From a virus, in the IMG/VR virus record IMGVR_UViG_3300036792_000097, positions 1-59,760 of that record: a DNA stretch of 59,760 nt; one strand, given 5' to 3'. The position numbers and the translations under genes were made by a program. Shown in pieces: positions 5,611 through 59,626 of the stretch (positions are counted from its first letter, which is position 1; every line of letters begins with the position of its first letter). The notes under the pieces were generated by a model. It made no database searches. It was not told the origin of the DNA and worked only from the letters and a program-made list of their open reading frames with translations.

Positions 5611-5684
5611 GTCCCCAGGACCCTTGAGGGAGGGGTGGCCGCCCCTAAAGCGGCTTGCTGCGGGTTCGAAACCCGTTGGGGACT
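5611..5684 (+). tRNA. tRNA-like gene, anticodon CUA (candidate amber suppressor)
   Basis: All four stems form. The acceptor GTCCCCA/TGGGGAC has 7 pairs, the D stem ACCC/GGGT 4, the anticodon stem GCCGC/GCGGC 5 and the T stem GCGGG/CCCGT 5, with a TTCGAAA loop and a 5-nt variable loop. The anticodon loop is CCCTAAA, so the anticodon (5645-5647) is CUA, which reads UAG. Odd points are C at position 33 instead of U, G at 8, A at 10 and T at 14, and CCA is not encoded. It could be a working suppressor, a degenerate tRNA or a decoy. The PTH2-like gene with an in-frame UAG just upstream supports suppression. Confidence 0.62.
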
Positions 5685-5686
5685 CT

Positions 5687-33510: not shown

Positions 33511-33584
33511 CGCGGGATGGCGCAGTTCGGTAGCGCGGCGGGCTCATAACTCGCAGGTCACGGGTTCAAATCCCGTTCCCGCAA
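33511..33584 (+). tRNA. tRNA-Met (CAU), initiator-like
   Basis: All stems form: acceptor CGCGGGA/TCCCGCA, D stem GCGC/GCGC, anticodon stem GCGGG/CTCGC, T stem ACGGG/CCCGT. The anticodon is CAT at 33545-33547. C1 faces A72 without pairing, the hallmark of bacterial initiator tRNA. G29-G31 face C41, T40 and C39, close to the three G-C pairs of initiators. The typical A11-U24 pair is not present. CCA is not encoded. A TACAGT -10-like word lies about 60 bases upstream. Confidence 0.88.
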
Positions 33585-33585
33585 C

Positions 33586-38907: not shown

Positions 38908-40590
38908 ATGGGTAACAGGCTAACCGAGCGCGTTGACCTGCCGGACGGCACGTCCATGGCAGGGCCGCTGCTTGGCTCGCAGGTCCCGCGCTTCTCCAAC
39001 ATCCCCGACCGCCACCAGCTCCAGGTCCCCGACTGCCCCATGTGCGCGATCGAGCGCCTGGAGGAGAAGCACGACCACGGCTGCGGCGACCACGTAAGCA
39101 CTGAAGTCCTTGAGTGGGCTGAGGGCTTCGGCTACATGCTCGACCCCTGGCAGAAGTGGACCCTGCGGCACATGATGGGCCGCTTGCCAGACGGGCTGTG
39201 GGCTGCGCCTGACGTGGTGATGATCGTGGCCCGCCAGAACGGCAAGGGAACGGTCCTCGAAGTCCGCGAGCTGGCCGGGGTGTTCCTGCTGGGCGAAGAA
39301 CTCATAATCCACACCTCGCACCAGCTCAAGACATCCCTGAACCACCTCCAGCGGCTGACCGACACCATCAAGTCCTACCCGTCGCTGGAGAAGAAGGTCG
39401 CCAGCATCGTCACGGGCAACGGCAAGGAAGCCATCAAGCTCAAGCCCCGGCGCACTATCATCTTCGGCTCCGGCGGCAAGGAAATCAGTGCACGGCGAAC
39501 TTCCAAGATCGAGTTCCACGCCCGCTCCGGCGCGGCGACCTCCCGAGGCTTCTCCTGTGACTGCCTGGTCTATGACGAGGCCATGATCCTCTCGAACGAG
39601 CAGGTCGGTGCCTCTATGCCTACCATGCGCGCGCGGCCCAACCCCCAGATGATCTACGCGGCCTCAGCCGGCCTGGAAGACGGGTCGGTGTCCCAGCAGC
39701 TCGCCGTCATGCGCTCGCTGATGATCAAGGGCGACCCGCAGACGTTCGGCCTGGAGTTCTCCGCCAACCCCCACGACGAGGGCTGCCCGCGCGACGAGCT
39801 GAAGGGCCGGGAGACCAACTACTTCTACGTGTGCGACAAGCACGACGACCGCGACGACCCGCGCACCTGGGCCAAGGCCAACCCCGGCATGGGCGAGCGC
39901 ATTACCCTCGCCACCACGCGCCGTGAACTCGCCAAGATGCCCCCGGCGAAGTTCGACATCGAGATCCTGTCCATCGGCAACTGGCCTTCGGCGGAAGAGC
40001 CCTGGGAGACCATCAGCAAGCCCGCGTGGAAGCTCCTGGTCAACGAGGACCCCGGCTTCCCGACGCCGCCACTGGTGTTCGCGTTCGACGTGTCCGAGGA
40101 CGGCAAGTCGGCAACGGTCATGGGCGCGTGGGAGCACAAGCAGAAGCGCATCGTGATCGAGATGCCGCGTGACGGCCACCGGCAGGGCACCAAGTGGGTG
40201 ATCGAGTACCTGCACGCCAAGTACATGAAGCGCCGCCCGCTCGCCATCGCCATACCCAAGGCAGGCCCGGCCGCCGGCCTCCTGGACGATGCCGTTCGCA
40301 AGTGGGGCGACCGCGTGTACCCGGTGGGGCCCGCTGAGGAGGCTGCCGCGTTCGCGTTCATGCTCCAGCAGGTCAAGGAACAGAAGCTCTGGCACTTCGG
40401 CCAGGAGCTGGCCCCGACGCTGTGGCAGGCAGTGGGCCGCGCAGGTACTAGAGTGGTGGGCGACGGGGGCAAGGCGTGGTCCAGGCGGGATGCCGAGTCG
40501 GATATCTCACCGATCACAGCGGCTACACTAGCGGCCTACGTACTCAACAAGAAGCGCAGGTCGTACGACCTCTCCAATACCGTTGCCTAG
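38908..40590 (+). CDS. terL: Terminase large subunit
   Basis: The 560-residue protein drives DNA packaging. The ATPase domain has a Walker A-like VARQNGKG at residues 107-114 and Walker B CLVYDEA at 219-225. The nuclease domain has FAFDVSEDG with Asp near 395 and ends with SDISPITAATLAAYV. Before the ATPase lies an unusual CPMC...HDHGCGDH cluster (residues 43-62) that looks zinc-binding. The start is fixed by the palindrome directly upstream. The UAG stop is followed in the same frame, five codons later, by the GTG of the vWA gene. Confidence 0.92.
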   Translation: MGNRLTERVDLPDGTSMAGPLLGSQVPRFSNIPDRHQLQVPDCPMCAIERLEEKHDHGCGDHVSTEVLEWAEGFGYMLDPWQKWTLRHMMGRLPDGLWAAPDVVMIVARQNGKGTVLEVRELAGVFLLGEELIIHTSHQLKTSLNHLQRLTDTIKSYPSLEKKVASIVTGNGKEAIKLKPRRTIIFGSGGKEISARRTSKIEFHARSGAATSRGFSCDCLVYDEAMILSNEQVGASMPTMRARPNPQMIYAASAGLEDGSVSQQLAVMRSLMIKGDPQTFGLEFSANPHDEGCPRDELKGRETNYFYVCDKHDDRDDPRTWAKANPGMGERITLATTRRELAKMPPAKFDIEILSIGNWPSAEEPWETISKPAWKLLVNEDPGFPTPPLVFAFDVSEDGKSATVMGAWEHKQKRIVIEMPRDGHRQGTKWVIEYLHAKYMKRRPLAIAIPKAGPAAGLLDDAVRKWGDRVYPVGPAEEAAAFAFMLQQVKEQKLWHFGQELAPTLWQAVGRAGTRVVGDGGKAWSRRDAESDISPITAATLAAYVLNKKRRSYDLSNTVA

Positions 40591-44020: not shown

Positions 44021-45835
44021 GTGGCGCGGTACCGCGATCGGCTGCTCTCTTCGGCCCAGGTAGAGCAGCGCGTGATCGGCGGCGTGCCCTGGCGGCCCTG
44101 GGATTCCTGGCAGTGGCGCTTTGACTCCGGCGGCCCCGCGCACCCCTCGCGGCAGTTCATGGGCGCGGATGCCGCGCTTGGCCTTCCGGCGCTCTACGCT
44201 GCCATCAATCTGATCGCAGACAACGTGGCGTCGATGCCGCTGCGTGTCTACCTCCAGAGCATGGGGCGCGACGGCTACCCCGGCAAGCGGCTGTGGACTG
44301 GCCCGTCCATTTTTGACGAGCCCTCCTACAACACCACGCAGTTCGAGTGGATCAAGATGGCGCTAGCCTGCGTGCTGCTCCAGGGTAACGCGTGGGGATT
44401 CATTACCGGCCGTGACAACTACGGGTACCCCACGGGCGTGCAATGGCTGCCCCCGCAGGACGTGTACGTTCACGAGGCGAGTGACGAGAATACCTGGAAT
44501 CCCCTGGCCGCCAAGGTGTTCATGTTCGGTCGCGAAGTTCAGTGGCACGGGCCTGACGCCGAGGTCTTCCACATTAAGGGCCTGCCTATCAATGGCAGGC
44601 TTGAGGGCATTTCTCCGCTTAGGAGTTTCGCGCTGCTGTACACCAGCGGCGTCGAGGCAATGCGCTTCGGCAATGACTGGTTTGCCTCCGGCGGTTTCCC
44701 CTCGGGCACATTCCAGAACGCCGAGATTGAGGTGGACAAGCAGCAGGCCGCTGAAATGCGTGCTGAGCTGGTTAAGTCCCTGCGCCGCCATGAGCCGCTG
44801 GTCTACGGGCGTGACTGGGATTACAAGCCGGTAACCGTCCCGCCGGCCGAGGCGCAGTTCCTGGAGACCATCCAGATGAACGCGACTCAGGTCGCTGCGA
44901 TCTACAACGTGCCGCCTGACCGCATCGGCGGTACCCGTGGCGACTCGCTGACTTATAACACGGTCGAGCAGTCCACACTCCAGATCATCGAGGCGTGCCG
45001 CCCGTGGCTGGTGAACTTCGAGCAGCGGTTCTCAATGCTCCTGCTGCCGCGCAACCGCATGTGCAAGTTCTACACCGACGCGCTGCTCAAGACTGACCTT
45101 GAAGCCCGTATGACCATGTACCAGATCATGAGGAACATCGGACTGGTCAGCATCAACGAGCTACGCGACATGGAAGACCGGCCGCCTATCGCAGGCGCTA
45201 TCGGTAACGAGTACCTGCCGCTGACCACCATGAACGCCATGGGCACCAGGGCCGGCGTCATTCCCAAGTCATTTATCCCGGCTGTGGAATTCGAGATGGA
45301 CCGCGCGGCCGACAAGCTGATCGCGCTTGAGAAGTACATCATCCCGTCGCTGGTCAAGCAGGGCTATCCCGTTCAGGGTGTAGCGCCAGCTCCCGGCGGG
45401 GCCGGGGCATTCGGTGGCACTTCGGCAGGCAGTAACGCAGGGTCTAGCTCAGCGGGAGGTGGTTCAGGTGGAGGATCGGCAGGAGGCGCAGGAGGAGCGC
45501 CCAGCCCCTACCCCATCACGGTCAACGGGCGTACGGGCACTCCTATCGGCCGTCCGAACGCGCCTCTCCCGCTGGCTCAGGACCCGGCGAGCTTCCTGGC
45601 CTCTCTGATCTCAGTCCAGCGCAACGCCGATGTTCCGTATGAGGCCCGGCTGGCTGCACAGCAGATCCTGGTGTCGGTGTGCGAGACCAATGACCGCATC
45701 GTTTCCGATAACCCCGGCATTAACGACGAGGCCGACTCGCGCCTTGTTCCGGGTCTCACCACCTACATGCCTGACGCCAAGCTGGCGCGGGACATGATCA
45801 CCAGCACTAACGGAAAGGGAAGGGGACATCTGTAA
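44021..45835 (+). CDS. Portal protein
   Basis: The 604-residue protein forms the DNA entry ring of the head. HK97-type portal features are seen: ALYAAINLIADNVASMPLRV near residue 55, GNAWGFITGRDNYGYP near 125 and IYNVPPDRIGGTRGDSLTYN near 300. After residue 460 a Gly/Ser-rich linker (GGGSGGGSAGGAGGAP) joins an extra C-terminal domain of about 110 residues. Family members are usually 400-500 residues. GTG is the start, and transcription may begin within a few bases of it. Confidence 0.88.
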   Translation: MARYRDRLLSSAQVEQRVIGGVPWRPWDSWQWRFDSGGPAHPSRQFMGADAALGLPALYAAINLIADNVASMPLRVYLQSMGRDGYPGKRLWTGPSIFDEPSYNTTQFEWIKMALACVLLQGNAWGFITGRDNYGYPTGVQWLPPQDVYVHEASDENTWNPLAAKVFMFGREVQWHGPDAEVFHIKGLPINGRLEGISPLRSFALLYTSGVEAMRFGNDWFASGGFPSGTFQNAEIEVDKQQAAEMRAELVKSLRRHEPLVYGRDWDYKPVTVPPAEAQFLETIQMNATQVAAIYNVPPDRIGGTRGDSLTYNTVEQSTLQIIEACRPWLVNFEQRFSMLLLPRNRMCKFYTDALLKTDLEARMTMYQIMRNIGLVSINELRDMEDRPPIAGAIGNEYLPLTTMNAMGTRAGVIPKSFIPAVEFEMDRAADKLIALEKYIIPSLVKQGYPVQGVAPAPGGAGAFGGTSAGSNAGSSSAGGGSGGGSAGGAGGAPSPYPITVNGRTGTPIGRPNAPLPLAQDPASFLASLISVQRNADVPYEARLAAQQILVSVCETNDRIVSDNPGINDEADSRLVPGLTTYMPDAKLARDMITSTNGKGRGHL

Positions 45836-46108: not shown

Positions 46109-47506
46109 ATGTCGGAAGACCGCGCTAAGCTCAGCTCGGGCGGCAGGAGCGCTCTGCCGGACTCGGCATTCGCTTACATCGAGCCAGGCCACCAGGTAAA
46201 CGGTAAGACCCCTGACAAGTTCCGGCACTTCCCGGTTCACGACGCGGCTCACGCCCGCAACGCCCTGGCCCGCATTGCCCAGGGTGCCCGCTTCGGTGCC
46301 CAGGCGAAGGCGAAGGTAATGGCTGCTGCCAAGAAGTTCGGCGTCCACCACGACGCTGACGACACCGGCCGCTCACTGGAGTCGATGTTCCCTGAGGTCC
46401 GCTACATCGCTGACAAGCCGGAGCTGCGCAGCGCGGGCGAAGGCCACCCGACCCACATCACGGGCTACGCGGCAGTGTTCAACAAGGTCTCCCGGCGTCT
46501 CGGCAACTTCCACGAGAAGGTCATGGACACCGCGTTCACTGAGGCGCTGCGGTCCATCGAGCGCGGGGACACCAATCTTGTCTGCCGGTACAACCACAAG
46601 GACGACATGCTGCTCGGCACCTCACTTGCCGGCACGCTGAAGGTCACCGTGGACGAGAAGGGCCTGCCGTACGACGTTGTTCCGCCGAGCTGCCGCGCCG
46701 ACGTGCTTGAGTACGTTGACCGTGGCGACGTGCGATACTCCAGCTTCGCGTTCCGCGTTCCCGAGCCCGGCACCGACGACTCCTGGGGTGAGTCCGAGTA
46801 CGGGCTGCCGATGCGGTCGCTGCATAACGTCGAGCTGGTAGACGTTGCGCCGGTTCTCGACCCCGCGTACAAGGACACCGTGGCTTCGGCCCGGAACCTG
46901 ACCGGCGCGATCGAGTCGCTGGCGGCCTGGGTGGACGGCGACCCGACTGAAGTCCGGCAGATGCTCGAAGCGGGCCAGGCTAGCCGGTTCTTCCGGCGCA
47001 CCGACCGCCCGAGTGTTCCGGTGGTTACCCCGTCTGCCGCTGTGAACCGCGAGGAGTCCCGTGTCCTGGACGACCCGGCTGTCGCGCTGCGCCGCTGGGT
47101 TATCGCGGAAGAGCCCGCGCCTGAGGGCGACGACATGGTGCCCGAGGACGACCGCTCGGTTCGCACCGAGGACGAGATCCGCGCCGCCAAGGGCAAGGAA
47201 TTCGGCCAGATGTGCCGCAAGTACATCGCTGGCGAGCCCTGCGTCCGCCCGGCCGGCCATGACGGTCACGAAGACGGCTCTGGCTGCAAGGGCCTTTGCT
47301 GGGGCCGCCACAACGGCCTGCCTTGCAATCAGGAGCAGGACCACGAGGGCCCGCACACCCCGATCCGGGTGGACAGCCGCTCGGAAGAGGGCGAGCCTTC
47401 CGAGGAGCGTCAGGAAGAGGCCGAGCCTGTCACCATGACGGGCCCCGAGGCAATGCGGAAGATGTTCGAGCGCAAGAAGGCGCTAACCGCCCTTCCCGAG
47501 GACTGA
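46109..47506 (+). CDS. Prohead protease (S78 family) with extra domains
   Basis: The 465-residue protein matures the capsid. Residues about 110-270 are the HK97-type serine protease: HITGYAAVFNKVSRRLG, catalytic His in YNHKDDMLLG (residue 163), Ser in VRYSSFAF (about 211) and VELVDVAPVLDPAY. It has an added N-terminal domain (SAFAYIEPGHQVNGKTPDKF, RNALARIAQG; DUF6582-like). The Cys/His-rich C-terminal tail holds CRKYIAGEPC, CKGLCWGRHNGLPC and similar motifs. No separate scaffold gene is seen, so the tail or the capsid N-terminus may scaffold. Confidence 0.85.
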   Translation: MSEDRAKLSSGGRSALPDSAFAYIEPGHQVNGKTPDKFRHFPVHDAAHARNALARIAQGARFGAQAKAKVMAAAKKFGVHHDADDTGRSLESMFPEVRYIADKPELRSAGEGHPTHITGYAAVFNKVSRRLGNFHEKVMDTAFTEALRSIERGDTNLVCRYNHKDDMLLGTSLAGTLKVTVDEKGLPYDVVPPSCRADVLEYVDRGDVRYSSFAFRVPEPGTDDSWGESEYGLPMRSLHNVELVDVAPVLDPAYKDTVASARNLTGAIESLAAWVDGDPTEVRQMLEAGQASRFFRRTDRPSVPVVTPSAAVNREESRVLDDPAVALRRWVIAEEPAPEGDDMVPEDDRSVRTEDEIRAAKGKEFGQMCRKYIAGEPCVRPAGHDGHEDGSGCKGLCWGRHNGLPCNQEQDHEGPHTPIRVDSRSEEGEPSEERQEEAEPVTMTGPEAMRKMFERKKALTALPED

Positions 47507-47551: not shown

Positions 47552-47625
47552 CCTGGAAACTGAACTACTGAGGTCGCAACGTCGTTGCGGAGCCAGTGTC
47601 CAATTCTCGTAAGAGAGGAAAGACA

Positions 47626-48984
47626 GTGGCATCCGAAGTTGCAAAGCGCCTGCACGAGCAGGTTCAGCGCACCTGGCACGAGATTGAGCAGCTTACGCTC
47701 AAGGCCAGCGATGAGCACCGGAACTTCAACTCCGACGAGCAGGCGAAGCACGACGCCCTGCACGTGGAGCTGGACACCAACGACAAGCGCCTCCGCGAAG
47801 TTCTCGACACTGAGAAGCGCGCCAAGGAAACCGATGACCTCTTCAACGCGGCTGCGTCGCGGCCCGAGGTTCCCGGTACCCGCAAGGCTGAGGGCTTCGA
47901 GGCTGAGGCCCGTGCGTTCTTCGGCCCGAACCCGCCTCGCGATGAGCGCGGTCGCCCGGCGCTGGAGATCCCGAGCCTGAACTCGCGGCTCATGCACAAG
48001 CTCTCGACCGGGCGTCCCATGAGCCCGACCGAAGTTCGTGTTCTGACGGACGGTTACCTGGGTAGCGGCAACTACACCAACCCGACCAACTCCGGCATCG
48101 TCCCGATCGACTTCTACGACCAGCTCCTGAGCTACCTCATTGAGGTCTCCGGCGTGATGCAGACCGGCCCGACCGTCCTGAACACCACGGGCGGCGAGCC
48201 GATCCAGATCCCGATCGTCAACCAGCACACGGGCCTCTCGTCCGCGACGCAGGTTGCCGTCTCGGCCGGCCAGGGCGCGGTCCTCCCGTCCGCCGACCCG
48301 GTGTTCGCGCAGAAGACCCTGACGGCGAACAAGTTCGGCATCATGATCCAGGTCTCGCGGGAACTGATCGACGACTCCGGCGTCAACCTGCTCGGCTACC
48401 TCGCGATGTCGGCGGGCCGCGCGCTCGGTAACTTCCTGGGCAACGAGCTGGTCAACGGCGGGTCCGGCATCTCGGCGGGCATCCTGACCGCGCCTGTCGC
48501 GATCACCGGCGGTTCCTCCACGGCGGCTACGGCCACCAACCAGGTTCTCGGCGGGCCCAGCTACAACAACCTGGTGGACATGGAGTACTCCGTGATCGCC
48601 CCCTACCGTCAGAGCCGGTCCTGCTACTGGCTGGCGGCGGACAAGACCCTCGGCGTCCTGCGCAAGCTGACTGACACCGTGGGCCGGCCGATCTGGGAGC
48701 CTTCCACGGTGCTCGGTGCGCCTGACCTGCTGCTCGGCAAGCCCCTGGTGGCGGACCCATTCATGCCGGCCATTGGCTCCGGGCACACGGCGATCGTCTT
48801 CGGCGACTTCGCGCAGTACTTCATCCGGATGGTCGGCGGAGTGCGGTTCGAGCGGTCGGACGACTTCGCCTTCAACACGGACCTGGTGTCCTTCCGGGCC
48901 ATCATCCGTGCTGACGGCAACCTGATGAACCCGCCTTCCTACGCGCCGCAGCCCCTCGCGGTGTTCCAGGGCGGTACTACCTGA
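47626..48984 (+). CDS. Major capsid protein (HK97 fold)
   Basis: GTG 47626 has GAGAGGAAA upstream. Of the 452 residues, the first 110 are a charged helical delta-domain-like scaffold region. The shell domain follows, with SGIVPIDFYDQLLSYLIEVS, QTGPTVLNTTGGEPIQIPIV, GIMIQVSRELIDDSGVNLLG and FGDFAQYFIRMVGGVRFERS, a typical HK97-type series. Cleavage by the prohead protease would fall after the helical region. Confidence 0.9.
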   Translation: MASEVAKRLHEQVQRTWHEIEQLTLKASDEHRNFNSDEQAKHDALHVELDTNDKRLREVLDTEKRAKETDDLFNAAASRPEVPGTRKAEGFEAEARAFFGPNPPRDERGRPALEIPSLNSRLMHKLSTGRPMSPTEVRVLTDGYLGSGNYTNPTNSGIVPIDFYDQLLSYLIEVSGVMQTGPTVLNTTGGEPIQIPIVNQHTGLSSATQVAVSAGQGAVLPSADPVFAQKTLTANKFGIMIQVSRELIDDSGVNLLGYLAMSAGRALGNFLGNELVNGGSGISAGILTAPVAITGGSSTAATATNQVLGGPSYNNLVDMEYSVIAPYRQSRSCYWLAADKTLGVLRKLTDTVGRPIWEPSTVLGAPDLLLGKPLVADPFMPAIGSGHTAIVFGDFAQYFIRMVGGVRFERSDDFAFNTDLVSFRAIIRADGNLMNPPSYAPQPLAVFQGGTT

Positions 48985-50773: not shown

Positions 50774-51553
50774 GTGGTCCTCATGACCAGCTATAACCGC
50801 CCGCAGCCACGGCCTGCCGGCAAGCTGGGCTGTCTTCCCGGCTACGTACCAAACGGCCTTTACGACCTGACCTGGTACGTAGCTGGAGCCCTGCCCAAGG
50901 CCCCGCTGTCCGTCAAGCCGCCAACACCCCCGGCGAACTCTGACGGCACGCCATGGGGCATGGACGGCAACGACTCCTACGGTGACTGCGGTGTTGCGGG
51001 TAACAACCACGGCGAGATGTGCGTGGACGTGGACACCAAGACCTCGCTGCTCCCGCTGACCTCTGCCCAGATCGTCCAGTACTACCTGACGTACACGGGT
51101 GGCCAGGACAACGGCGTGGTACTCGCGGACTTCCTTGCCTACGTGAAGAAGACCGGGTGGTTCGGCCGCAAGCTGGCCGCCTACGCGCCGGTCTCGATCA
51201 CCGACTACAAGACCCTCCAGTTCGCCATCAACGCCTACGGCTACGCCTACACGGGCATCGCGGTCACCGACCTGATGATGAACGCGTTCCAGGAGGGCCA
51301 GCCGTGGACGGCGGCCGACTTCCAGAACGGCAGCGTCGAGGGCGGTCACTGCATCCCGCTTGTCGGGTACGACAGCGAATACCTCTACTGCGTCACCTGG
51401 GGCGGCGTTCAGCCTATCCAGTACTCGGCGTGGCACCTCATGTCCTCTGAGGCGTGGGCGTGCATCTGGGGCGAAGTCCCCTCCACCGGCCTTGACGGGC
51501 ACGGCGTCAACCTCGCCGCCCTTCAGTCGGACCTGGCCAACCTCCGCAAGTGA
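50774..51553 (+). CDS. Papain-like cysteine peptidase-fold protein, 259 residues
   Basis: GGAG lies six bases before GTG. The pattern SYGDCGVAGNNHG near residue 66, then EGGHCIPLVGYDSEYLYCVT and WGG near 197-220, is that of papain-like enzymes: Cys after a turn, His in GGH, and a final aromatic-Gly strand. It may process virion proteins or the host surface. In some phage relatives the fold serves structurally. Confidence 0.62.
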   Translation: MVLMTSYNRPQPRPAGKLGCLPGYVPNGLYDLTWYVAGALPKAPLSVKPPTPPANSDGTPWGMDGNDSYGDCGVAGNNHGEMCVDVDTKTSLLPLTSAQIVQYYLTYTGGQDNGVVLADFLAYVKKTGWFGRKLAAYAPVSITDYKTLQFAINAYGYAYTGIAVTDLMMNAFQEGQPWTAADFQNGSVEGGHCIPLVGYDSEYLYCVTWGGVQPIQYSAWHLMSSEAWACIWGEVPSTGLDGHGVNLAALQSDLANLRK

Positions 51554-51732: not shown

Positions 51733-52800
51733 ATGCGAATCTACGCCTCCCATGACGGCGGTTCAGGGTGTGCCTGGTACCGGATGCTGGTACCGCTTCG
51801 CGCGGTGAACAAACTCGCGGACGACGTAACCGTTAAGTTCTTCAAGGGCGGCCCTAAGCTGATGCGCGGCGAGCCTGATCCGCCGTTGCTCATACCAGAT
51901 GCCCCTGAAGCTGACGTGATTGTTGCCCAGCGGGCGAACTCATTCGACGGCATGGGTGTCTGGCGGCGCTTCGCGACTCCTACCTGCCGCACGGTGTACG
52001 AGAACGATGACGATATCTGGCATATCACCCGCGACAACACGCAGGCGTACGACAGCTACGCTGAAGGCGGGGAAGCCCGCGAGGTAGTGCTGCGCCTGTG
52101 CGCGACCGCCAACATGGTGACCTGCTCGACTCCGTACCTGGGTGACATGCACCGCGAGCTGACGCCGCTGACGCCCGTTGTAGTCCTGCCGAACTACATC
52201 CCCGAGTTCGTCCTGGACCTCAAGCACGACGACCGCAAGGGCAGGGGTCGGCTGGGCTGGATGGGCGGTGCGTCGCACGGCAGGGATATTCACATGGCTA
52301 CCTCGGCAGTCAGGCGCTTCATGAAGCGGTTCCCGGACTGGGACCTGTACCTGTCCGGTGTTGACTACCGCAGGGAGTTCAAGTGCCCGCCGGAGCGTTC
52401 CTTCCACATCCCGTGGATTCACGTCTGCGATGACTCCGATATCTTCTACCGGGCGATCGACTTCGATATCGGGATCTGCCCGCTGCTCGATACCCAGTTC
52501 GCGCGCTCGAAGAGCCACATCAAGGCACTGGAGTACATGGCGCGCGGGATGCCGGTGATCGCCAGCGACGTTGAGCCGTACCGGAAGTTCATCAAGCACG
52601 GCGAGAACGGCTTCCTGGTCAAGCACGAGCACGAGTGGCTGAGCGCTCTGTCGGAGCTGGCCAGCGATGATAAGCTGCGGCAGGAGATGGGCGCGAACGC
52701 TCATGCCTGGGCTGCCGAGCACACGATCGAGAAGCACTACACGGAATGGGTGAACGCGTACAAGATGCTGTTCCCCGGAGGGTGGGAGTTCAAGGGATGA
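51733..52800 (+). CDS. Glycosyltransferase family 1/4-like, 355 residues
   Basis: N-terminal Rossmann half (GCAWYRMLVPLRAVNKLADD, DVIVAQRANSFDGMGVW) and C-terminal half with GICPLLDTQFARSKSHIKAL, EYMARGMPVIASDVEPYRKF and HGENGFLVKHEHEWLSAL, the classic GT-B donor-binding region with its Glu. It transfers a sugar from a nucleotide donor. It is first of a sugar block of five genes that mostly overlap by a few bases. Confidence 0.85.
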   Translation: MRIYASHDGGSGCAWYRMLVPLRAVNKLADDVTVKFFKGGPKLMRGEPDPPLLIPDAPEADVIVAQRANSFDGMGVWRRFATPTCRTVYENDDDIWHITRDNTQAYDSYAEGGEAREVVLRLCATANMVTCSTPYLGDMHRELTPLTPVVVLPNYIPEFVLDLKHDDRKGRGRLGWMGGASHGRDIHMATSAVRRFMKRFPDWDLYLSGVDYRREFKCPPERSFHIPWIHVCDDSDIFYRAIDFDIGICPLLDTQFARSKSHIKALEYMARGMPVIASDVEPYRKFIKHGENGFLVKHEHEWLSALSELASDDKLRQEMGANAHAWAAEHTIEKHYTEWVNAYKMLFPGGWEFKG

Positions 52801-52952
52801 GGTACACGATCGACCGGGTGATCAGCCTGGAACAGTTCGATGCCTTCGCCGGCGACCCGGCCTGGCTGCTTATCAGGCAGCTTCGCGAGATGCGCGAGGA
52901 ACTGCCGACTGCCCAGTACCTGATGCTGCGCCTTGAGGCAAACGATGAATGA
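52797..52952 (+). CDS. Hypothetical 51-residue protein
   Basis: Overlaps the GT stop (ATGA) and the next start. Helical (SLEQFDAFAGDPAWLLIRQL). Perhaps an accessory peptide of the sugar block. Confidence 0.55.
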   Translation: MRYTIDRVISLEQFDAFAGDPAWLLIRQLREMREELPTAQYLMLRLEANDE

Positions 52953-53553
52953 GCCGCTGGTCACCGTAGTCACGTCATCGTGGCAGCGGCCCACCACCGT
53001 CCTGCGCCACGCCGGGGCGAGCGTTAACCGGCAGACCTACCCGCGCATCGAGCACCTGGTGGTCATCGACGGGGACGACCCGGCGACCGTGAACTCCCTG
53101 GACGAGGCCGGCTACTCGTTCGGGCTGTCCATGCGCCGGATGATCTCCCTCGGCCGCAACTGGTCCTCGTTCTCCGGCGACGAGGGCTACGGTGCTACCG
53201 CCCGCCTGGTGGGCGCGTGGTGCGCGCAGGGTGACCTGATCGCCTACCTGGATGACGACAACGACTACGACCCGGCCCACATCGCGGAGATGGCAGCGCT
53301 GTTCGAGGACCCCCTGATCGACTTCGCCACCAACGGCCCGGCGTTCCCTCCCGGCACCGGCCGCACGGACACCAGCGGAATAATGCACCGCGCTGAAGTG
53401 CTGAAGAGGGCAGGCGGCTTTCACCCGGACGGGTACGAGAGCGACGGGCACATGATTGACCGCTGGATAGCCGCCGGGCTCATATACGCGAACAAGCACA
53501 ACCCCACGTTCTGCCTCACTACCGGATACCACCACGGAGCACCCCTCGGATGA
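52945..53553 (+). CDS. Glycosyltransferase family 2-like, 202 residues
   Basis: A GT-A fold with VTVVTSSWQRPTTVLRHAGA at the start and LIAYLDDDNDYDPAHIAEMA, where DDD is the metal/nucleotide site. SGIMHRAEVLKRAGGFHPDG matches the acceptor side. It transfers sugars from UDP- or GDP-sugars. Confidence 0.8.
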   Translation: MNEPLVTVVTSSWQRPTTVLRHAGASVNRQTYPRIEHLVVIDGDDPATVNSLDEAGYSFGLSMRRMISLGRNWSSFSGDEGYGATARLVGAWCAQGDLIAYLDDDNDYDPAHIAEMAALFEDPLIDFATNGPAFPPGTGRTDTSGIMHRAEVLKRAGGFHPDGYESDGHMIDRWIAAGLIYANKHNPTFCLTTGYHHGAPLG

Positions 53554-54605
53554 TCGCACCCGCTACTCTCGCCGTGGTAATCGCCACGTGCCGCCCCGAG
53601 TCGTTCAAGCGCTGGTTCGAAGCCTGGAAGGACAAGCTGGACGGCGTTGCCGTCTACGTAGTAGAAGACCAGCCCAAGAAGACCGAAGACCTCCAGATTA
53701 TTGAGAGGATCATCGGCTGGCACCACTACTCCTGGGAAGAGATAGACGCTGACCTCGGCAAGAAGTCCTGGGTCATCCCGCGCCGCACGAGCGCCATCAA
53801 GAGCTACGGGTTCCTGAAGGCTTGGCAGGACGGCCACGACTACATCTGGACCCTGGACGACGACTGCTTCCCTGAGCCGCATGTCAGCTACGTAGATGAC
53901 ATCAAGTGGGAACTGCGCAACACGCACCCGGACGACTCCTGGCACAACACCATCTACTGGACCGGCCTGTATCCAAGGGGATACCCCTACGGCATCCGGC
54001 AGCAGCAGCAGCCGGTGATGATCCACCACGGCCTGTGGTCAGGCGTCCCCGACCTGGACGGCATCACGGCGCTGGAGCACTCCAAGCTGCGCATGGACCC
54101 CGTGCACGGGGTGAGGCGCGTGCCGACCGGCCAGTTTTTCCCGATGTGCGGCATGAACCTGGCGTTCCAGCGTGAGATGGCCCCGGCGATGCACTTCGGC
54201 CTCCAGGGCAGGATGCGCGACGATGCCTACGATCACGTGCTGGGCCCCGGCCAGACCAACCCGCTGCCGTTCGACAGGTTCGATGACATCTGGGCGGGCC
54301 TGTTCGCCAAGAAGATCTGCGATCACCGGGGCTACGCCGTCACCTCGGGCGGCCCGAGCATCATCCACACCAAGGAATCCGACCCGACGATGCGCGTCAT
54401 CAAGGAAGGGCCGGGCATCGCTGTCCACGAGAAGCTGTGGGAGCACATCAGGGACACTAAGCTGACCGTTACGACAGTGGCTGACTGCTACCGGCAGCTT
54501 GCCAGGAGCGTGCGTGAGTTCTCAGTGCTTGACCCTGACCGCTCGGAGTACTGGAAGCTTCTGGCGCGGGCCATGTTTATCTGGACGGAGTTCTTCGATG
54601 AATAA
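53550..54605 (+). CDS. RGP-like protein (UDP-arabinopyranose mutase family), 351 residues
   Basis: IWTLDDDCFPEP near residue 93 and FPMCGMNLAFQREMAPAMHF near 200, followed by RFDDIWAGLFAKKICDHRGY, closely follow reversibly glycosylated polypeptides, known best from plants. Those enzymes interconvert UDP-arabinopyranose and UDP-arabinofuranose and self-glycosylate on an Arg. A related glycosyltransferase function is possible. Its place between two glycosyltransferases and an epimerase/dehydratase suggests supply of an unusual sugar donor. Confidence 0.75.
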   Translation: MIAPATLAVVIATCRPESFKRWFEAWKDKLDGVAVYVVEDQPKKTEDLQIIERIIGWHHYSWEEIDADLGKKSWVIPRRTSAIKSYGFLKAWQDGHDYIWTLDDDCFPEPHVSYVDDIKWELRNTHPDDSWHNTIYWTGLYPRGYPYGIRQQQQPVMIHHGLWSGVPDLDGITALEHSKLRMDPVHGVRRVPTGQFFPMCGMNLAFQREMAPAMHFGLQGRMRDDAYDHVLGPGQTNPLPFDRFDDIWAGLFAKKICDHRGYAVTSGGPSIIHTKESDPTMRVIKEGPGIAVHEKLWEHIRDTKLTVTTVADCYRQLARSVREFSVLDPDRSEYWKLLARAMFIWTEFFDE

Positions 54606-55692
54606 GACGATCCTGATCACGGGCGCTGGTGGCTTCGTAGGCCACCACTTCCTTGAGCACGTTCTCGCCACTACTGACTGGAACGTGGTAGCCACCGACT
54701 CGTTCCGGCACAAGGGGCGTACCGACCGGATCGCGCAGGTACTGGACGCCCAGCCCCTTCACGACTGGAATGCCCCGGAGAAGCCGAGCTACGTCAACTG
54801 GAAGAAGCGCGTCAAGGTAGTCACCCATGACCTGTGTGCGCCGTTCACAGCCCAGCAGGTGCGCGAGCTACAGGCGACAGGTATCGACTACATAGCCGCG
54901 TTCGCCTCGGAGAGCCACGTGGACCGCTCTATCTCCGACCCTGTGAACTTCTGCCGGAACAACATCGAAATCGCCTATACGACCCTGGAGCTGGCTCGCA
55001 AGCTGCGTCCTACGGCAATCGTCTGGGTGTCCACCGACGAAGTGTACGGCCCGGTGGCGGCGAATGACTTCCGTGGCCACCCGGAGTGGGCCTCCATCCT
55101 GCCCAGCAACCCCTACAGTGCCTCCAAGGCCGCGCAGGAAGCTCTCGCCATCTCCTACTGGCGCACGTACGGCCTGCCAGTGGTGATCGTGAACTGCATG
55201 AACATGATCGGGGAGCGCCAGGATCTGGAGAAGTACATCCCGCTGGTGATCTCCAAGGTCTACAAGGGTGAGGAAGTCACCATCCACGGCACGCCGGGAA
55301 ACGTCGGCACGCGCCATTACCTGCACGCCCGCAACCTCGCGGACGCAATGTGCTTCATCTTCAAGCGCGAGCAGACCCCGGCGCTGTTCCATTCTCACGT
55401 TCCGGCCTACGATGTTCATTCTGCGGACAGGCCCGACCGCTACAACATCGCCTCGCCGGACAGGATCGACAACCTGACGCTCGCCCGGATGATCGCGGAT
55501 GACATCGGCAAGCCGCTGAAGTTCAAGCTGGAGGACTTCCACTCCACGCGGCCGGGCCATGACCCGCACTACGGGCTCGACCCGTCCAAGCTGTACAACC
55601 TCGGCTGGTCAATGCCGGTGCCGTTCCGGGAGTCCCTGGCCAAGACAGTGGCGTGGACGCTGGAGCACCCCGAGTGGCTGCTGCCCGACTGA
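54598..55692 (+). CDS. NAD-dependent nucleotide-sugar epimerase/dehydratase
   Basis: The 364-residue protein is an extended SDR. It has ITGAGGFVGHHF (NAD-binding GxxGxxG), SESHVDRSI, VSTDEVYG and YSASK with catalytic Tyr and Lys. RHYLHARNLADAM follows. It resembles dTDP-glucose or GDP-mannose 4,6-dehydratases and UDP-sugar epimerases. The donor is not determined. It overlaps both neighbours by a few bases. Confidence 0.85.
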   Translation: MNKTILITGAGGFVGHHFLEHVLATTDWNVVATDSFRHKGRTDRIAQVLDAQPLHDWNAPEKPSYVNWKKRVKVVTHDLCAPFTAQQVRELQATGIDYIAAFASESHVDRSISDPVNFCRNNIEIAYTTLELARKLRPTAIVWVSTDEVYGPVAANDFRGHPEWASILPSNPYSASKAAQEALAISYWRTYGLPVVIVNCMNMIGERQDLEKYIPLVISKVYKGEEVTIHGTPGNVGTRHYLHARNLADAMCFIFKREQTPALFHSHVPAYDVHSADRPDRYNIASPDRIDNLTLARMIADDIGKPLKFKLEDFHSTRPGHDPHYGLDPSKLYNLGWSMPVPFRESLAKTVAWTLEHPEWLLPD

Positions 55693-56384
55693 TGCGCACC
55701 GTAGCGTTCATCCCGTATTTTGGCGGCGAGGGCCCCAAGGCACCGTCTCCCAGCGGCAAGCGCCCGGAATACTTCCGAAAGACTGTGAACTCACTTCACG
55801 ACTTCGCGGACGATATCTGGGTGGGCGTGTGCCAGGCGGAGGACTACGCTCCTATACGGGGCATCAGCTATCTCAAAACGGTACTGCTGGACTGCGAGCC
55901 GCATGAGATTCCCCTGGAGCTGGTGAAGTTCGGTCAGGAGGACGGGGTGCTCACCAAGGCTGACTTCGTGTACGTGACCGAGGCCGACCAGATCATGCAC
56001 CTGGACATCGACCTGCTGGCCGAAGTTCACGGTAACGACTACCTTGTCCCGCACCGGCTGGAGCAGCTAGGGCCGAACGACCAGGGAGCTGACCGGGGTC
56101 CTGTCGTAGAACATGACAACCGGCAGTTCGTACTCGCAAACGGCTGGCCGCAGGGTCCGCCTCCGTTGTACCACCCGGAGACCTGGGGTTTCGGTTACGG
56201 CGGCGCGTTCCTGTCTACGGCTGATTTCTTCCGCAGCCTGCGTTTCAACCTGCACCCCGACTTCTGCGTTGAGAACATTACCGGCCGCACTGCGTACTTT
56301 GCGGGCAACGGGTACAAGTCATCAGACTGGCGGAAGTTCTTTGTGGAACACCTGTCTGGCTATGACTACCACTGCAAGCTGTAG
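55692..56384 (+). CDS. Candidate glycosyltransferase, 230 residues
   Basis: Begins RTVAFIPYFGGEGPKAPSPS and contains DFVYVTEADQIMHLDIDLLA, where the acidic triplet could be a GT-A metal site, and ETWGFGYGGAFLSTADFFRS. Position after the epimerase/dehydratase supports a sugar role. The late-family palindrome at 55785 lies near its 5' end. Confidence 0.5.
   Translation: MRTVAFIPYFGGEGPKAPSPSGKRPEYFRKTVNSLHDFADDIWVGVCQAEDYAPIRGISYLKTVLLDCEPHEIPLELVKFGQEDGVLTKADFVYVTEADQIMHLDIDLLAEVHGNDYLVPHRLEQLGPNDQGADRGPVVEHDNRQFVLANGWPQGPPPLYHPETWGFGYGGAFLSTADFFRSLRFNLHPDFCVENITGRTAYFAGNGYKSSDWRKFFVEHLSGYDYHCKL
55785..55799. promoter_or_regulatory. GTGAA-N5-TTCAC palindrome inside gene
   Basis: GTGAACTCACTTCAC, perfect arms, 93 bases into the candidate glycosyltransferase gene. 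Confidence 0.6.
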
Positions 56385-56810: not shown

Positions 56811-57162
56811 CCCGTGGCGTCCGTGGGAGAAGTACCGGGACAAGAAGCCGTACACAGGACCGATGAAGGGCCAGCACGTGGTAGTTCCCCCGCCTGAGCC
56901 CAAGCGAGTTCCCGCGTTCGCCCCGCGCCACAACTACGGCGGCAACGGCACCATCCACCGCACGAGCACCATCGACGTGGTACTGGACGAGAACGGCGAC
57001 GTGAAGCAGGTGTGGTTCCGGTGCCTGGAGCTGCCGTTCACGGTAGACAAGCGCGATCACGATCCCGGCTACTACAACCCCGGTGATGACGGCTACGAGC
57101 GCAAGATTGCCATCGAGGAGATCACGTACGTGGACCTCCCTAGTGAAGAGAGTTCACAGTGA
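56803..57162 (+). CDS. Hypothetical 119-residue protein
   Basis: A basic Pro-rich N-terminus is followed by a beta region (TIDVVLDENGDVKQVWFRCL). The end of the gene contains the palindrome at 57143. Confidence 0.58.
   Translation: MGNPWRPWEKYRDKKPYTGPMKGQHVVVPPPEPKRVPAFAPRHNYGGNGTIHRTSTIDVVLDENGDVKQVWFRCLELPFTVDKRDHDPGYYNPGDDGYERKIAIEEITYVDLPSEESSQ
57143..57157. promoter_or_regulatory. GTGAA-N5-TTCAC palindrome at a gene junction
   Basis: GTGAAGAGAGTTCAC ends one base before the GTG of the methyltransferase gene at 57159. Confidence 0.62.
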
Positions 57163-57746
57163 AGATCGAGAAGCTGTCCAAGCTTGTAGCGGATGTTCAG
57201 CACGTCGAGCACCAGTTCAGCCTGCAAGGCATGGCCGACCGGACGTACAACCCCTGGATGCCCTACCAGCCCGCCGATTTCATCGGCATCATCTGGGAGT
57301 GCCTGCCCGAGCTGACCGGGAAGCACTTCCTGGACATCGGCTGCGGCCCCGGCACCAAGATGCAGATCGCGCAGGATCTGTTCGGCTTCGAAGTTCACGG
57401 CATTGAGGTCGATCCGGCCATGGCTGAGGAGGCACGCAAGCGCTTCTCTGGCGCGGGCACAGTGGTTACCGGCGACGCGCTTGACCTTCAGCCGGCCTAC
57501 CACCCGCTCGACGTGTTCGACCTGATCTGGCTGTACCGGCCGTTCCGCGACCCGGCGGCGGAGTACAAGCTGGAGCAGCAGATCATCGAGGCGATGAAGC
57601 CCGGCGCGATCCTGGCCGGCGGCATGTGGGACACCGACGTATCCTGCCTCGGCTGGCAGGTCATCGTGGACGACTGCATTATCTCGCCGGACGGCGCGAC
57701 CCAGATCGTCCGTGGTGCCTGGCAAAAGCCTGCGCCCGTGGAATAA
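57159..57746 (+). CDS. SAM-dependent methyltransferase, 195 residues
   Basis: HFLDIGCGPGTKMQIA (motif I) near residue 57, EVHGIEVDPAMAEEARKRF (acidic end of strand 2) and FDLIWLYRPF (motif IV region) mark a class I methyltransferase. No DNA-methylase DPPY/NPPY motif is present, so a sugar or small-molecule target is more likely, in keeping with the sugar genes upstream. Confidence 0.75.
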   Translation: MKIEKLSKLVADVQHVEHQFSLQGMADRTYNPWMPYQPADFIGIIWECLPELTGKHFLDIGCGPGTKMQIAQDLFGFEVHGIEVDPAMAEEARKRFSGAGTVVTGDALDLQPAYHPLDVFDLIWLYRPFRDPAAEYKLEQQIIEAMKPGAILAGGMWDTDVSCLGWQVIVDDCIISPDGATQIVRGAWQKPAPVE

Positions 57747-58869: not shown

Positions 58870-59100
58870 ATGAGCCACATGAGGCCGTATACGTACGACG
58901 TGGAGAGCACGGACCTGACAGACGAGGAAGTTAGCGCCTTTGCGCACCTCGTCCAGTTCACGTGCCACCGCGACTACCAGCACGACCTCTCGACCTGGCT
59001 CTCCCAGGTGGCCCGCAAGCTCCCGGCGAGTGTGTGCGATTACACAGCTCGTCAAGTAGAGGCAATGTGGCGGGTGGAATCTAGGCTGTTAGGCAGGTAA
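58870..59100 (+). CDS. Hypothetical 76-residue protein, last late gene
   Basis: Helical (TDEEVSAFAHLVQFTCHRDY, VARKLPASVCDYTARQVEAM). ATG 58879 with TAACAT seven bases upstream is an alternative leaderless start. Confidence 0.6.
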   Translation: MSHMRPYTYDVESTDLTDEEVSAFAHLVQFTCHRDYQHDLSTWLSQVARKLPASVCDYTARQVEAMWRVESRLLGR

Positions 59101-59626
59101 CCAACCCCAGGAGGTGGTGGAGATGAACCTGATCTTCAGCTTGACCTGGGAGGTGGTCCGCTTCTAACCGAAAAGCGGGAGTCGGCGTAACTGGAGTGAG
59201 TTGCGTCGGCCCCGCTTTTCGTATGAGATGCCGTGTTAGCCGGGCGAGCTGGGCAGGGTCGTCTAGCCCTAGAACACCCATTGCTACATTGCATCCCACA
59301 CAGACAATCCCTCGAACGCACGCTTTACATCCGTACTGTCCTGGGCAACAGCGATGATCGTGGTCGATGTGCGCAGAGTACCGCTGCTTGGGTTCCAGGG
59401 TGAGTTCATGCAGGCAGACGGCGCACTTGTAGTCCTGAGCCGCGAGCATGTGCAGGAACTCTGCTTCAGTCAGCCCGTGTCGTGTCCAGCGTTTCGGCAC
59501 CATGTAGCTTCGCCAGCGTGTTTTGCGACGAGTACGAGCTGCGGCGGTTTCGCACTTACCCGTCTGATGCGGCGGGCGGGCACAGTACTCCTGCGCCTTC
59601 GGCATCCAGTGGTTGCAGGTCTCCAC
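59081..59626 (-). CDS. Recombination endonuclease VII-like protein, 181 residues
   Basis: The core matches endonuclease VII. It contains YKCAVCLHELTL, SAHIDHDHRCCPGQYGCKAC, VRGIVCVGCNVAMGVLGLDD and PAQLARLTRHLI, which supply four zinc Cys and the catalytic DHDH. Such enzymes resolve branched DNA before packaging. GTG 59626 is used. TATAGACT lies just upstream and internal Met starts exist. The last 40 residues, past HLIRKAGP, cover a terminator hairpin and look like an extension. Confidence 0.82.
   Translation of the reverse strand: METCNHWMPKAQEYCARPPHQTGKCETAAARTRRKTRWRSYMVPKRWTRHGLTEAEFLHMLAAQDYKCAVCLHELTLEPKQRYSAHIDHDHRCCPGQYGCKACVRGIVCVGCNVAMGVLGLDDPAQLARLTRHLIRKAGPTQLTPVTPTPAFRLEADHLPGQAEDQVHLHHLLGLVTCLTA
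59123..59167 (+). CDS. 14-residue peptide gene with strong ribosome site
   Basis: CCAGGAGGTGGTGGAG lies immediately upstream of ATG. The peptide is MNLIFSLTWEVVRF and ends two bases before a terminator. It may be a tiny hydrophobic protein or a leader that couples translation to termination. Confidence 0.4.
   Translation: MNLIFSLTWEVVRF
59169..59221. terminator. Terminator of the late rightward block
   Basis: CGAAAAGCGGG pairs with CCCGCTTTTCG (11 bp). An inner stem GCGTAACT/AGTTGCGT forms within the 31-base loop. The T-rich right arm serves the rightward block and the mirrored A-rich left arm gives T-rich RNA leftward. Confidence 0.75.

What the first reader, a model, noticed from the sequence alone, without database searches (positions are those of the whole stretch)
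53550..54605. Plant-like reversibly glycosylated polypeptide / UDP-arabinopyranose mutase homologue
The MCGMNLAF and RFDDIWAG motifs and the DDDC site closely match RGPs, enzymes known chiefly for making UDP-arabinofuranose in plant walls. In a phage, with glycosyltransferases and an epimerase/dehydratase, it may build an arabinofuranose-type sugar on virion proteins or mimic actinobacterial arabinan.
Basis: partly seen in the sequence, partly recalled or inferred. Interest (0 to 1): 0.77.

Follow-up and report, generated by a model that had tools for sequence, protein, structure and literature searches.

The report
Phage sugar-ring mutase in glycosylation cassette
An uncultured phage carries an intact-looking enzyme of the plant UDP-arabinose mutase family, set inside a block of sugar-making and sugar-attaching genes beside its capsid gene, so it may decorate something, most likely its own particle, with a five-membered-ring sugar whose identity is still unknown.

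Summary
ORF 53550-54605 (+, 351 aa) matches Pfam RGP at 2.4e-43. Its AlphaFold model (pLDDT 85) matches only the two solved GT75 proteins, rice UAM2 and MtdL, at whole-fold level. The catalytic residues mapped in MtdL are present: DDD 103-105, nucleophile Arg143, Asp168, Arg243, base Asp246 and metal His273.

The protein is not specifically plant-like: its nearest kin are other phages and uncultured bacteria. Arabinose is not shown. The nucleotide-contact residues match neither plant nor MtdL enzymes, and the next gene is a hexose 4,6-dehydratase relative with intact TDE and YxxxK, which cannot lead to a pentose.

The anatomy is a late, overlapping cassette beside the capsid gene: GT4, GT2, RGP, dehydratase, orphan ORF, then methyltransferase. 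It recurs in four other phage contigs. A cousin has GT4-GT2-dehydratase without RGP, and others carry DegT aminotransferase or an SDR near that place. So RGP looks like an add-on donor-tailoring step.

Best reading: an NDP-pyranose/furanose mutase feeding a phage glycosyltransferase. Substrate and glycan target are inferred. GT75 in phages has been mentioned in print.

The parts
53550..54605 (+). RGP / GT75 NDP-pyranose mutase homologue, 351 aa; DDD 103-105, Arg143, Asp168, Gly201-Met202, Arg243, Asp246, His273
52945..53553 (+). GT2-family glycosyltransferase (ATG 52945, upstream TTG 52933), overlapping RGP by 4 nt; relatives directly before RGP in 5 other contigs (L002, L003, L006, L007, L008)
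54598..55692 (+). RmlB-like nucleotide-sugar 4,6-dehydratase relative (TDE and YxxxK intact), overlapping RGP by 8 nt
51733..52800 (+). GT4-family glycosyltransferase; 43-93% identical relatives in the same cassette of 4 other phage contigs; also next to the dehydratase in Streptomyces phage Zuko
52746..52952 (+). small ORF between GT4 and GT2, found also in L002 (start uncertain)
55692..56384 (+). orphan ORF, 230 aa, no family and no viral relative found; perhaps a divergent glycosyltransferase (guess)
57159..57746 (+). class I SAM methyltransferase, kept in all five cassettes
47596..48984 (+). HK97-type major capsid protein, upstream of the cassette on the same strand
44021..45835 (+). HK97-type portal protein (context)
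46109..47506 (+). prohead protease (context; family assigned from the pooled scan and by position)
38908..40590 (+). terminase large subunit (context; relatives mostly in phages of Actinomycetota)

Best explanation
The gene encodes a catalytically competent GT75 NDP-pyranose mutase. By the mechanism proposed for MtdL, Mn2+ held by Asp105 and His273 carries the diphosphate, Asp246 activates Arg143, and Arg143 attacks C1 of the bound sugar. The ring reopens and closes on O4, giving the NDP-furanose. The phage makes this donor late in infection, in one translationally coupled block with a GT2 enzyme (overlapping start/stop), a GT4 enzyme and a 4,6-dehydratase relative, and the glycosyltransferases put the furanose on a cytosolic acceptor, most likely a virion protein. 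The sugar is most likely a 6-deoxyhexose from the dehydratase branch or a hexose taken from the host, rather than arabinose. Shown here: the gene, family, fold, catalytic residues, cassette, and its recurrence and modularity. Inferred: activity, nucleotide and sugar, which GT uses the product, timing and the acceptor.
For: Family and fold. Residues essential in MtdL mutants (PMC9937993 text parts 1-4) are kept in the window, in 22 of 22 other viral rows, 34 of 34 bacterial and 31 of 31 archaeal rows for R159, D195, R257, D260, H287, D109 and D111 (D110: 33 of 34 bacterial). Purifying selection. Cassette capsid-GT4-GT2-RGP-dehydratase-MT in the window and 4 of 13 viral loci. GT2-RGP pair without the dehydratase or GT4 in L008 (58.9 kb record). 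Other phage RGPs sit next to GT2, TOD1/MUCI70 or GT17 enzymes. Tailoring slot: RGP absent from L288 with GT4-GT2-dehydratase kept (19.6 kb record); DegT in L284 and L303; SDR plus methyltransferase in L278. RGP-linked dehydratases and GT2s of the five phages each form one clade (SH-aLRT 86 and 86). GT4 plus RGP downstream of head genes (by eye) also in L329 and L339. Precedent: passages state that mycobacteriophages glycosylate capsid and tail tube proteins.
Against: No activity data. The dehydratase product is a 4-ketosugar, which cannot close on O4 until reduced, and no ketoreductase was recognised in the window, so the host or an unrecognised ORF must supply one, or RGP uses another sugar. 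In L101, another dehydratase-linked phage, the substrate-site residues differ from those of the cassette phages. The dehydratase is below the NCBIfam dTDP-glucose 4,6-dehydratase cut-off (213.8 against 365.1). L329 and L339 have DTD and Gln in place of the phosphate-binding Arg, so phage RGPs can decay or change. Nothing shows that any virion is glycosylated.
Confidence: 0.6

Rival explanations
1. It is a true UDP-L-arabinopyranose mutase as in plants, making UDP-L-Araf for an arabinofuranosylated virion.
For: Same family. Ser81 matches AtRGP2 Ser91 and Gly201 matches Gly216, positions where the swap to the MtdL residue hurts AtRGP2 (S91D no UDP-Galf product, G216S about half).
Against: At MtdL Ser86, where the plant Asp blocks GDP, the window has Thr; at Thr13 (plant Pro) Ala; at Asn42 (plant Asp) Pro. 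No UDP-xylose synthase or UDP-xylose 4-epimerase was seen; the neighbour is a 4,6-dehydratase relative, a hexose enzyme.
Confidence: 0.12
2. It modifies the host envelope (seroconversion or superinfection exclusion) rather than the virion.
For: Phage glycosyltransferases often serve this end (general knowledge); the furanose-rich walls of mycolic-acid actinobacteria offer acceptors.
Against: No flippase or polyprenol-phosphate GT was recognised beside it; the GTs have no noted membrane part (by eye). The cassette sits among late head genes, not early or lysogeny genes.
Confidence: 0.17
3. The mutase and GT2 serve glycosylation of phage DNA, as the arabinosyl-hmC of RB69 does.
For: Phage nucleotide-sugar genes can serve DNA modification (RB69, passages).
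Against: No base-hydroxymethylating enzyme was seen among the families shown for 35 larger proteins (all 15 Pfam families, but only 25 of 50 PHROG families were shown). The main text on RB69 holds no occurrence of 'mutase' or 'furanose'. The cassette lies beside the capsid gene.
Confidence: 0.05
4. The protein only autoglycosylates or binds nucleotide sugar, or is a decaying passenger gene without mutase activity.
For: Some plant members are inactive (PMC9937993); L329 and L339 have lost the phosphate-binding Arg.
Against: The residues lost in the inactive plant type (Arg257, His287) are kept here; reading frame, overlaps and purifying selection are intact.
Confidence: 0.1

Closest known systems
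MtdL (and Hyg20), GT75 GDP-pyranose mutases of actinobacterial antibiotic pathways
   Same: Fold, DDD, Arg nucleophile, Asp base, metal His; both belong to sugar-transfer pathways (MtdL from the paper)
   Different: 22-24% identity; Ser, Gly and Met replace MtdL sugar contacts Asp87, Ser228 and Gln229; Ala12, Pro42 and Thr80 replace its guanine contacts Thr13, Asn42 and Ser86; Ser277 replaces His292
Plant UAM/RGP (rice UAM2, 8cid; AtRGP2 from the paper)
   Same: Fold; AtRGP2-like Ser and Gly at two sugar-site positions; glycosylated Arg
   Different: 26% identity to UAM2; not the plant residues at base-contact positions; phage operon; has the third Asp of DDD and the phosphate and metal residues that UAM2 itself lacks
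Uncultured bacterial GT75 proteins (Patescibacteria, Planctomycetota, Acidobacteriota)
   Same: Up to 42% identity, same catalytic set
   Different: Cellular; no TDE-type dehydratase was found within the fetched flanks
Phage GT4 + 4,6-dehydratase sets (Streptomyces phages Zuko and KimJongPhill; Arthrobacter phage Mimi)
   Same: Homologous GT4 and dehydratase, adjacent in Zuko
   Different: No RGP in Zuko or Mimi and no match to this GT2 in the phages collection
Mycobacteriophage virion glycosylation (Che8, Corndog, Myrna; primary paper not held)
   Same: Actinophage glycosyltransferases acting on head and tail proteins (passages)
   Different: A pyranose-furanose mutase is not mentioned in the passages seen; glycosylation here is untested

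Membership tests
GT75 / RGP (PF03214) | Profile match over curated cut-off, full length | tested here: met
   149.1 against 23.8 bits, residues 7-349
GT75 / RGP (PF03214) | GT-A plus GT75 core and C-terminal helices | tested here: met
   query TM 0.76-0.77 to 8cid and MtdL, all other listed chains 0.44 or less
GT75 / RGP (PF03214) | DDD motif and metal-binding His | tested here: met
   D103-D105, H273
GT75 / RGP (PF03214) | Autoglycosylated/nucleophilic Arg, Asp pair around it, phosphate-binding Arg | tested here: met
   R143, D168, D246, R243
GT75 / RGP (PF03214) | Metal-dependent NDP-pyranose/furanose mutase activity | not testable with these tools
   needs the purified protein
GT75 / RGP (PF03214) | Conserved hydrophobic dimer interface (MtdL L295/L298/V302) | not tested
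   -
Plant UDP-arabinopyranose mutase | Plant residues at the base-contact sites (Pro, Asp, Asp at MtdL 13, 42, 86) | tested here: not met
   Ala, Pro, Thr (plant residues from PMC9937993)
Plant UDP-arabinopyranose mutase | Groups with active plant UAMs in a tree | not tested
   only rice UAM2, of inactive type, was at hand; it forms a long branch of unsure place
dTDP-glucose 4,6-dehydratase (RmlB), neighbour gene | TDE and YxxxK catalytic motifs | tested here: met
   T148-D149-E150, Y175-K179, invariant in 8 of 8 phage rows; motif roles recalled
dTDP-glucose 4,6-dehydratase (RmlB), neighbour gene | NCBIfam equivalog cut-off TIGR01181 | tested here: not met
   213.8 against 365.1 bits
Phage virion glycosylation system | Phage-encoded glycosyltransferases in the late region | tested here: met
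   GT4 and GT2 downstream of the capsid
Phage virion glycosylation system | Glycan on virion proteins | not testable with these tools
   needs particles

The most novel reading that the evidence does not exclude
A lineage of actinophages inserted a cation-dependent pyranose-furanose mutase once into an existing GT4-GT2-dehydratase cassette and so carries 6-deoxyhexofuranosyl (or other furanosyl) glycans of its own making on its capsid; the RGP-less cousin L288 would carry the pyranose or unmutated form.
Probability: 0.3. Interest if true: 0.7.

Novelty: new variant of a known kind. Interest (0 to 1): 0.45.

Why it matters
If true, phages not only attach host sugars to their particles but reshape the sugar ring first, which would give virions a glycan the host may not make. 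It also offers natural with/without pairs (window-type against L288-type cassettes) to test what a furanose does for a phage, and perhaps a further substrate class for GT75, whose only characterised bacterial members were two antibiotic-pathway enzymes when the MtdL paper was written.

Tried and rejected
Rejected: 'plant-derived gene' (nearest kin are phage and uncultured bacteria); DNA glycosylation; a strict GT2-RGP partnership, which looked attractive after but fell when L288 and L292 showed GT2 relatives without RGP; 'the dehydratase always goes with RGP' (1 of 80).

A pattern that I could not settle: the five dehydratase-linked cassette phages have Ala, Lys and Gly at MtdL positions 13, 90 and 228, while their four sister phages without that dehydratase (L004, L008, L009, L097) have Pro, Arg and Ile or Val. 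It would fit a substrate change linked to the dehydratase, but it is a single split in the tree, and L101 does not follow it.

Led nowhere: single-sequence fold of ORF 55692-56384 (pLDDT 31; not searched further) and a viral scan for its relatives (none); PADLOC (no hit); near-identity DNA search against named phages (none); 8CID in the literature (none; the rice origin came from the Foldseek title); MtdL with GDP-fucose and mutase in the literature (none).

Limits: viral scans use short peptide patterns and keep at most 80 loci; contigs may be fragments; the trees are quick ones with SH-aLRT only; dN/dS is a plain NG86 count.

Full report
1. Observation. Pfam RGP matches at 2.4e-43 over residues 7-349. 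PHROGs and NCBIfam have no matching model at the thresholds used. In the PDB only GT75 chains match strongly over the whole protein: rice UAM2 (8cid) and MtdL. The gene overlaps the GT2 gene before it by ATGA and the dehydratase after it by 8 nt, has coding-type GC by position, and is under purifying selection (dN/dS about 0.32 against L002, 0.13-0.56 among the other pairs, one pair saturated).

2. Fold and active site. AlphaFold2 with twelve phage sequences gives pLDDT 85.1 and pTM 0.87; only residues 220-242 are poor. Foldseek ranks 8cid and six MtdL entries first (E 9e-22 to 7e-21, query TM 0.76-0.77), then general GT-A enzymes at E 9e-7 or worse. With the MtdL residue roles from PMC9937993 (I read text parts 1-4 of 7), the window keeps Asp109-111 as D103-105, Arg159 as R143, Asp195 as D168, Arg257 as R243, Asp260 as D246 and His287 as H273. 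Apart from one bacterial row at D110, these are invariant in the 22 other viral, 34 bacterial and 31 archaeal rows aligned there. Three phage homologues found later and not in that count vary: L329 and L339 have DTD and Gln for Arg257, and L327 is MtdL-like in several motifs.

3. Which sugar? The paper ties base choice to Thr13 and Ser86 of MtdL, with a moderate effect of Asn42; active plant enzymes have Pro, Asp and Asp at 13, 86 and 42. The window has Ala12, Thr80 and Pro42, so it is neither type. At sugar contacts it has Ser81 and Gly201, as AtRGP2 does (Ser91, Gly216), where MtdL has Asp87 and Ser228. This fits neither a GDP-fucose enzyme nor a plain plant UAM. The next gene is a relative of dTDP-glucose 4,6-dehydratase (TIGR01181 213.8 bits, below the 365.1 cut-off; best PDB hits are RmlB-type) with TDE and YxxxK intact in 8 of 8 phage rows. 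Such enzymes act on hexoses, so they do not lead to arabinose. Their 4-keto product cannot itself be closed on O4; a reductase is needed and none was recognised.

4. Cassette. In the window and in L002, L003, L006 and L007 (4 of the 13 viral loci) the order is capsid, GT4, GT2, RGP, dehydratase, methyltransferase. The terminase has its relatives chiefly in phages of Mycobacterium, Gordonia, Propionibacterium, Arthrobacter and kin, and a WhiB-like gene is present, so the host is likely an actinomycete (inference). In other phages RGP lies next to a GT2 (L008, L088), TOD1/MUCI70 (L004), GT17 (L097), or a GT2-like enzyme and a dehydratase (L101).

5. Modularity. Whole-record searches of 13 records show RGP in 11, the dehydratase in 8, GT4 in 7 and GT2 in 5; Zuko and Mimi have GT4 and dehydratase without RGP, and L008 has GT2 and RGP without the others. 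Scans seeded with GT2 and GT4 (best 80 loci each, of 258 and 451 relatives) found RGP nearby in 5 and 7. L288 has GT4-GT2-dehydratase with RGP missing from its place, and its 19.6 kb record has no RGP; L284 and L303 carry a DegT aminotransferase and L278 an SDR and a methyltransferase between GT4 and dehydratase. On quick trees the RGP-linked dehydratases and GT2s of the five cassette phages each form one group with support 86, near L288. One insertion of RGP into a standing cassette explains this most simply; a loss in L288 is not excluded.

6. Origin. In a tree of 90 GT75 proteins nine phage proteins including the window form a group (92), joined by a Patescibacteria-group protein (97); the virus label needs seven changes over the whole tree (at least three forced by starred branches), so phages took up GT75 several times or exchanged it with hosts. 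Rice UAM2 and MtdL are long branches of unsure place. Of 50,697 phage records one, an uncultured 595-kb phage, has a match. A prokaryote scan gave 66 loci, nearly all titled as metagenome-assembled genomes of uncultured bacteria and archaea and none titled as Actinomycetota (a pattern scan, so absence is not shown).

7. Mechanism and destination. By analogy with MtdL the reaction runs through an Arg143-sugar adduct (proposed, not settled, even for MtdL). The product would feed the overlapping GT2 or the GT4. Position among late head genes and published virion glycosylation in mycobacteriophages (passages; the primary paper is not held) make virion proteins the likeliest acceptor. No direct evidence was found.

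8. Novelty. Searches for phage with 'UDP-arabinopyranose mutase' (1 paper), bacteriophage with 'reversibly glycosylated polypeptide' (4), 'phage-encoded' with 'galactopyranose mutase' (6, 5 listed) and phage with GT75 (2) showed no paper on such an enzyme's role by their listings; I opened only one of these, PMC12016548 (passages and references). It states in one sentence that phage-encoded GT75 was identified in soil microbiomes, citing a PNAS 2024 paper that is not held. So phage GT75 as a gene is already on record; the cassette anatomy, the intact active site and the add-on reading are what this report adds, as far as these searches reach.

Noticed in passing
window 5611-5685 (+): ARAGORN calls a tRNA with CUA (amber-reading) anticodon, labelled tRNA-Pyl; a suppressor tRNA in a phage would be of interest.
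   Followed up: no
window 33511-33585 (+): tRNA-Met(CAT) gene.
   Followed up: no
window, pooled scan of 35 larger ORFs: The phage encodes a Thg1-type tRNA-His guanylyltransferase and a Ku protein; exact ORFs not assigned.
   Followed up: no
window 50774-51553 (+): ORF matching phrog_19005 (unknown function), kept at 92% in L002; by eye it has a papain-like Cys/His layout (recalled, not tested).
   Followed up: no
window 59081-59626 (-): ORF with spaced Cys pairs and an HIDHDH motif, looks like a recombination endonuclease VII (from recall).
   Followed up: no
window 55692-56384 (+): Orphan ORF in the cassette with no family, no viral relative and no usable fold.
   Followed up: partly
window 53550-54605, protein residues 220-242: A longer loop before the Arg243 motif than in other GT75 proteins, shared only with L002 among the 12 rows compared (42 and 41 residues against 29-34).
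   Followed up: partly
L329 6131-7144; L339 5641-7059: Phage RGPs near a GT4 with DTD for DDD and Gln for the phosphate-binding Arg: natural variants of a site that is essential in MtdL.
   Followed up: partly
L327 2105-3295: A third RGP near a GT4 relative in a viral contig, of MtdL-like type (SQN motif), apart from the main phage clade.
   Followed up: no
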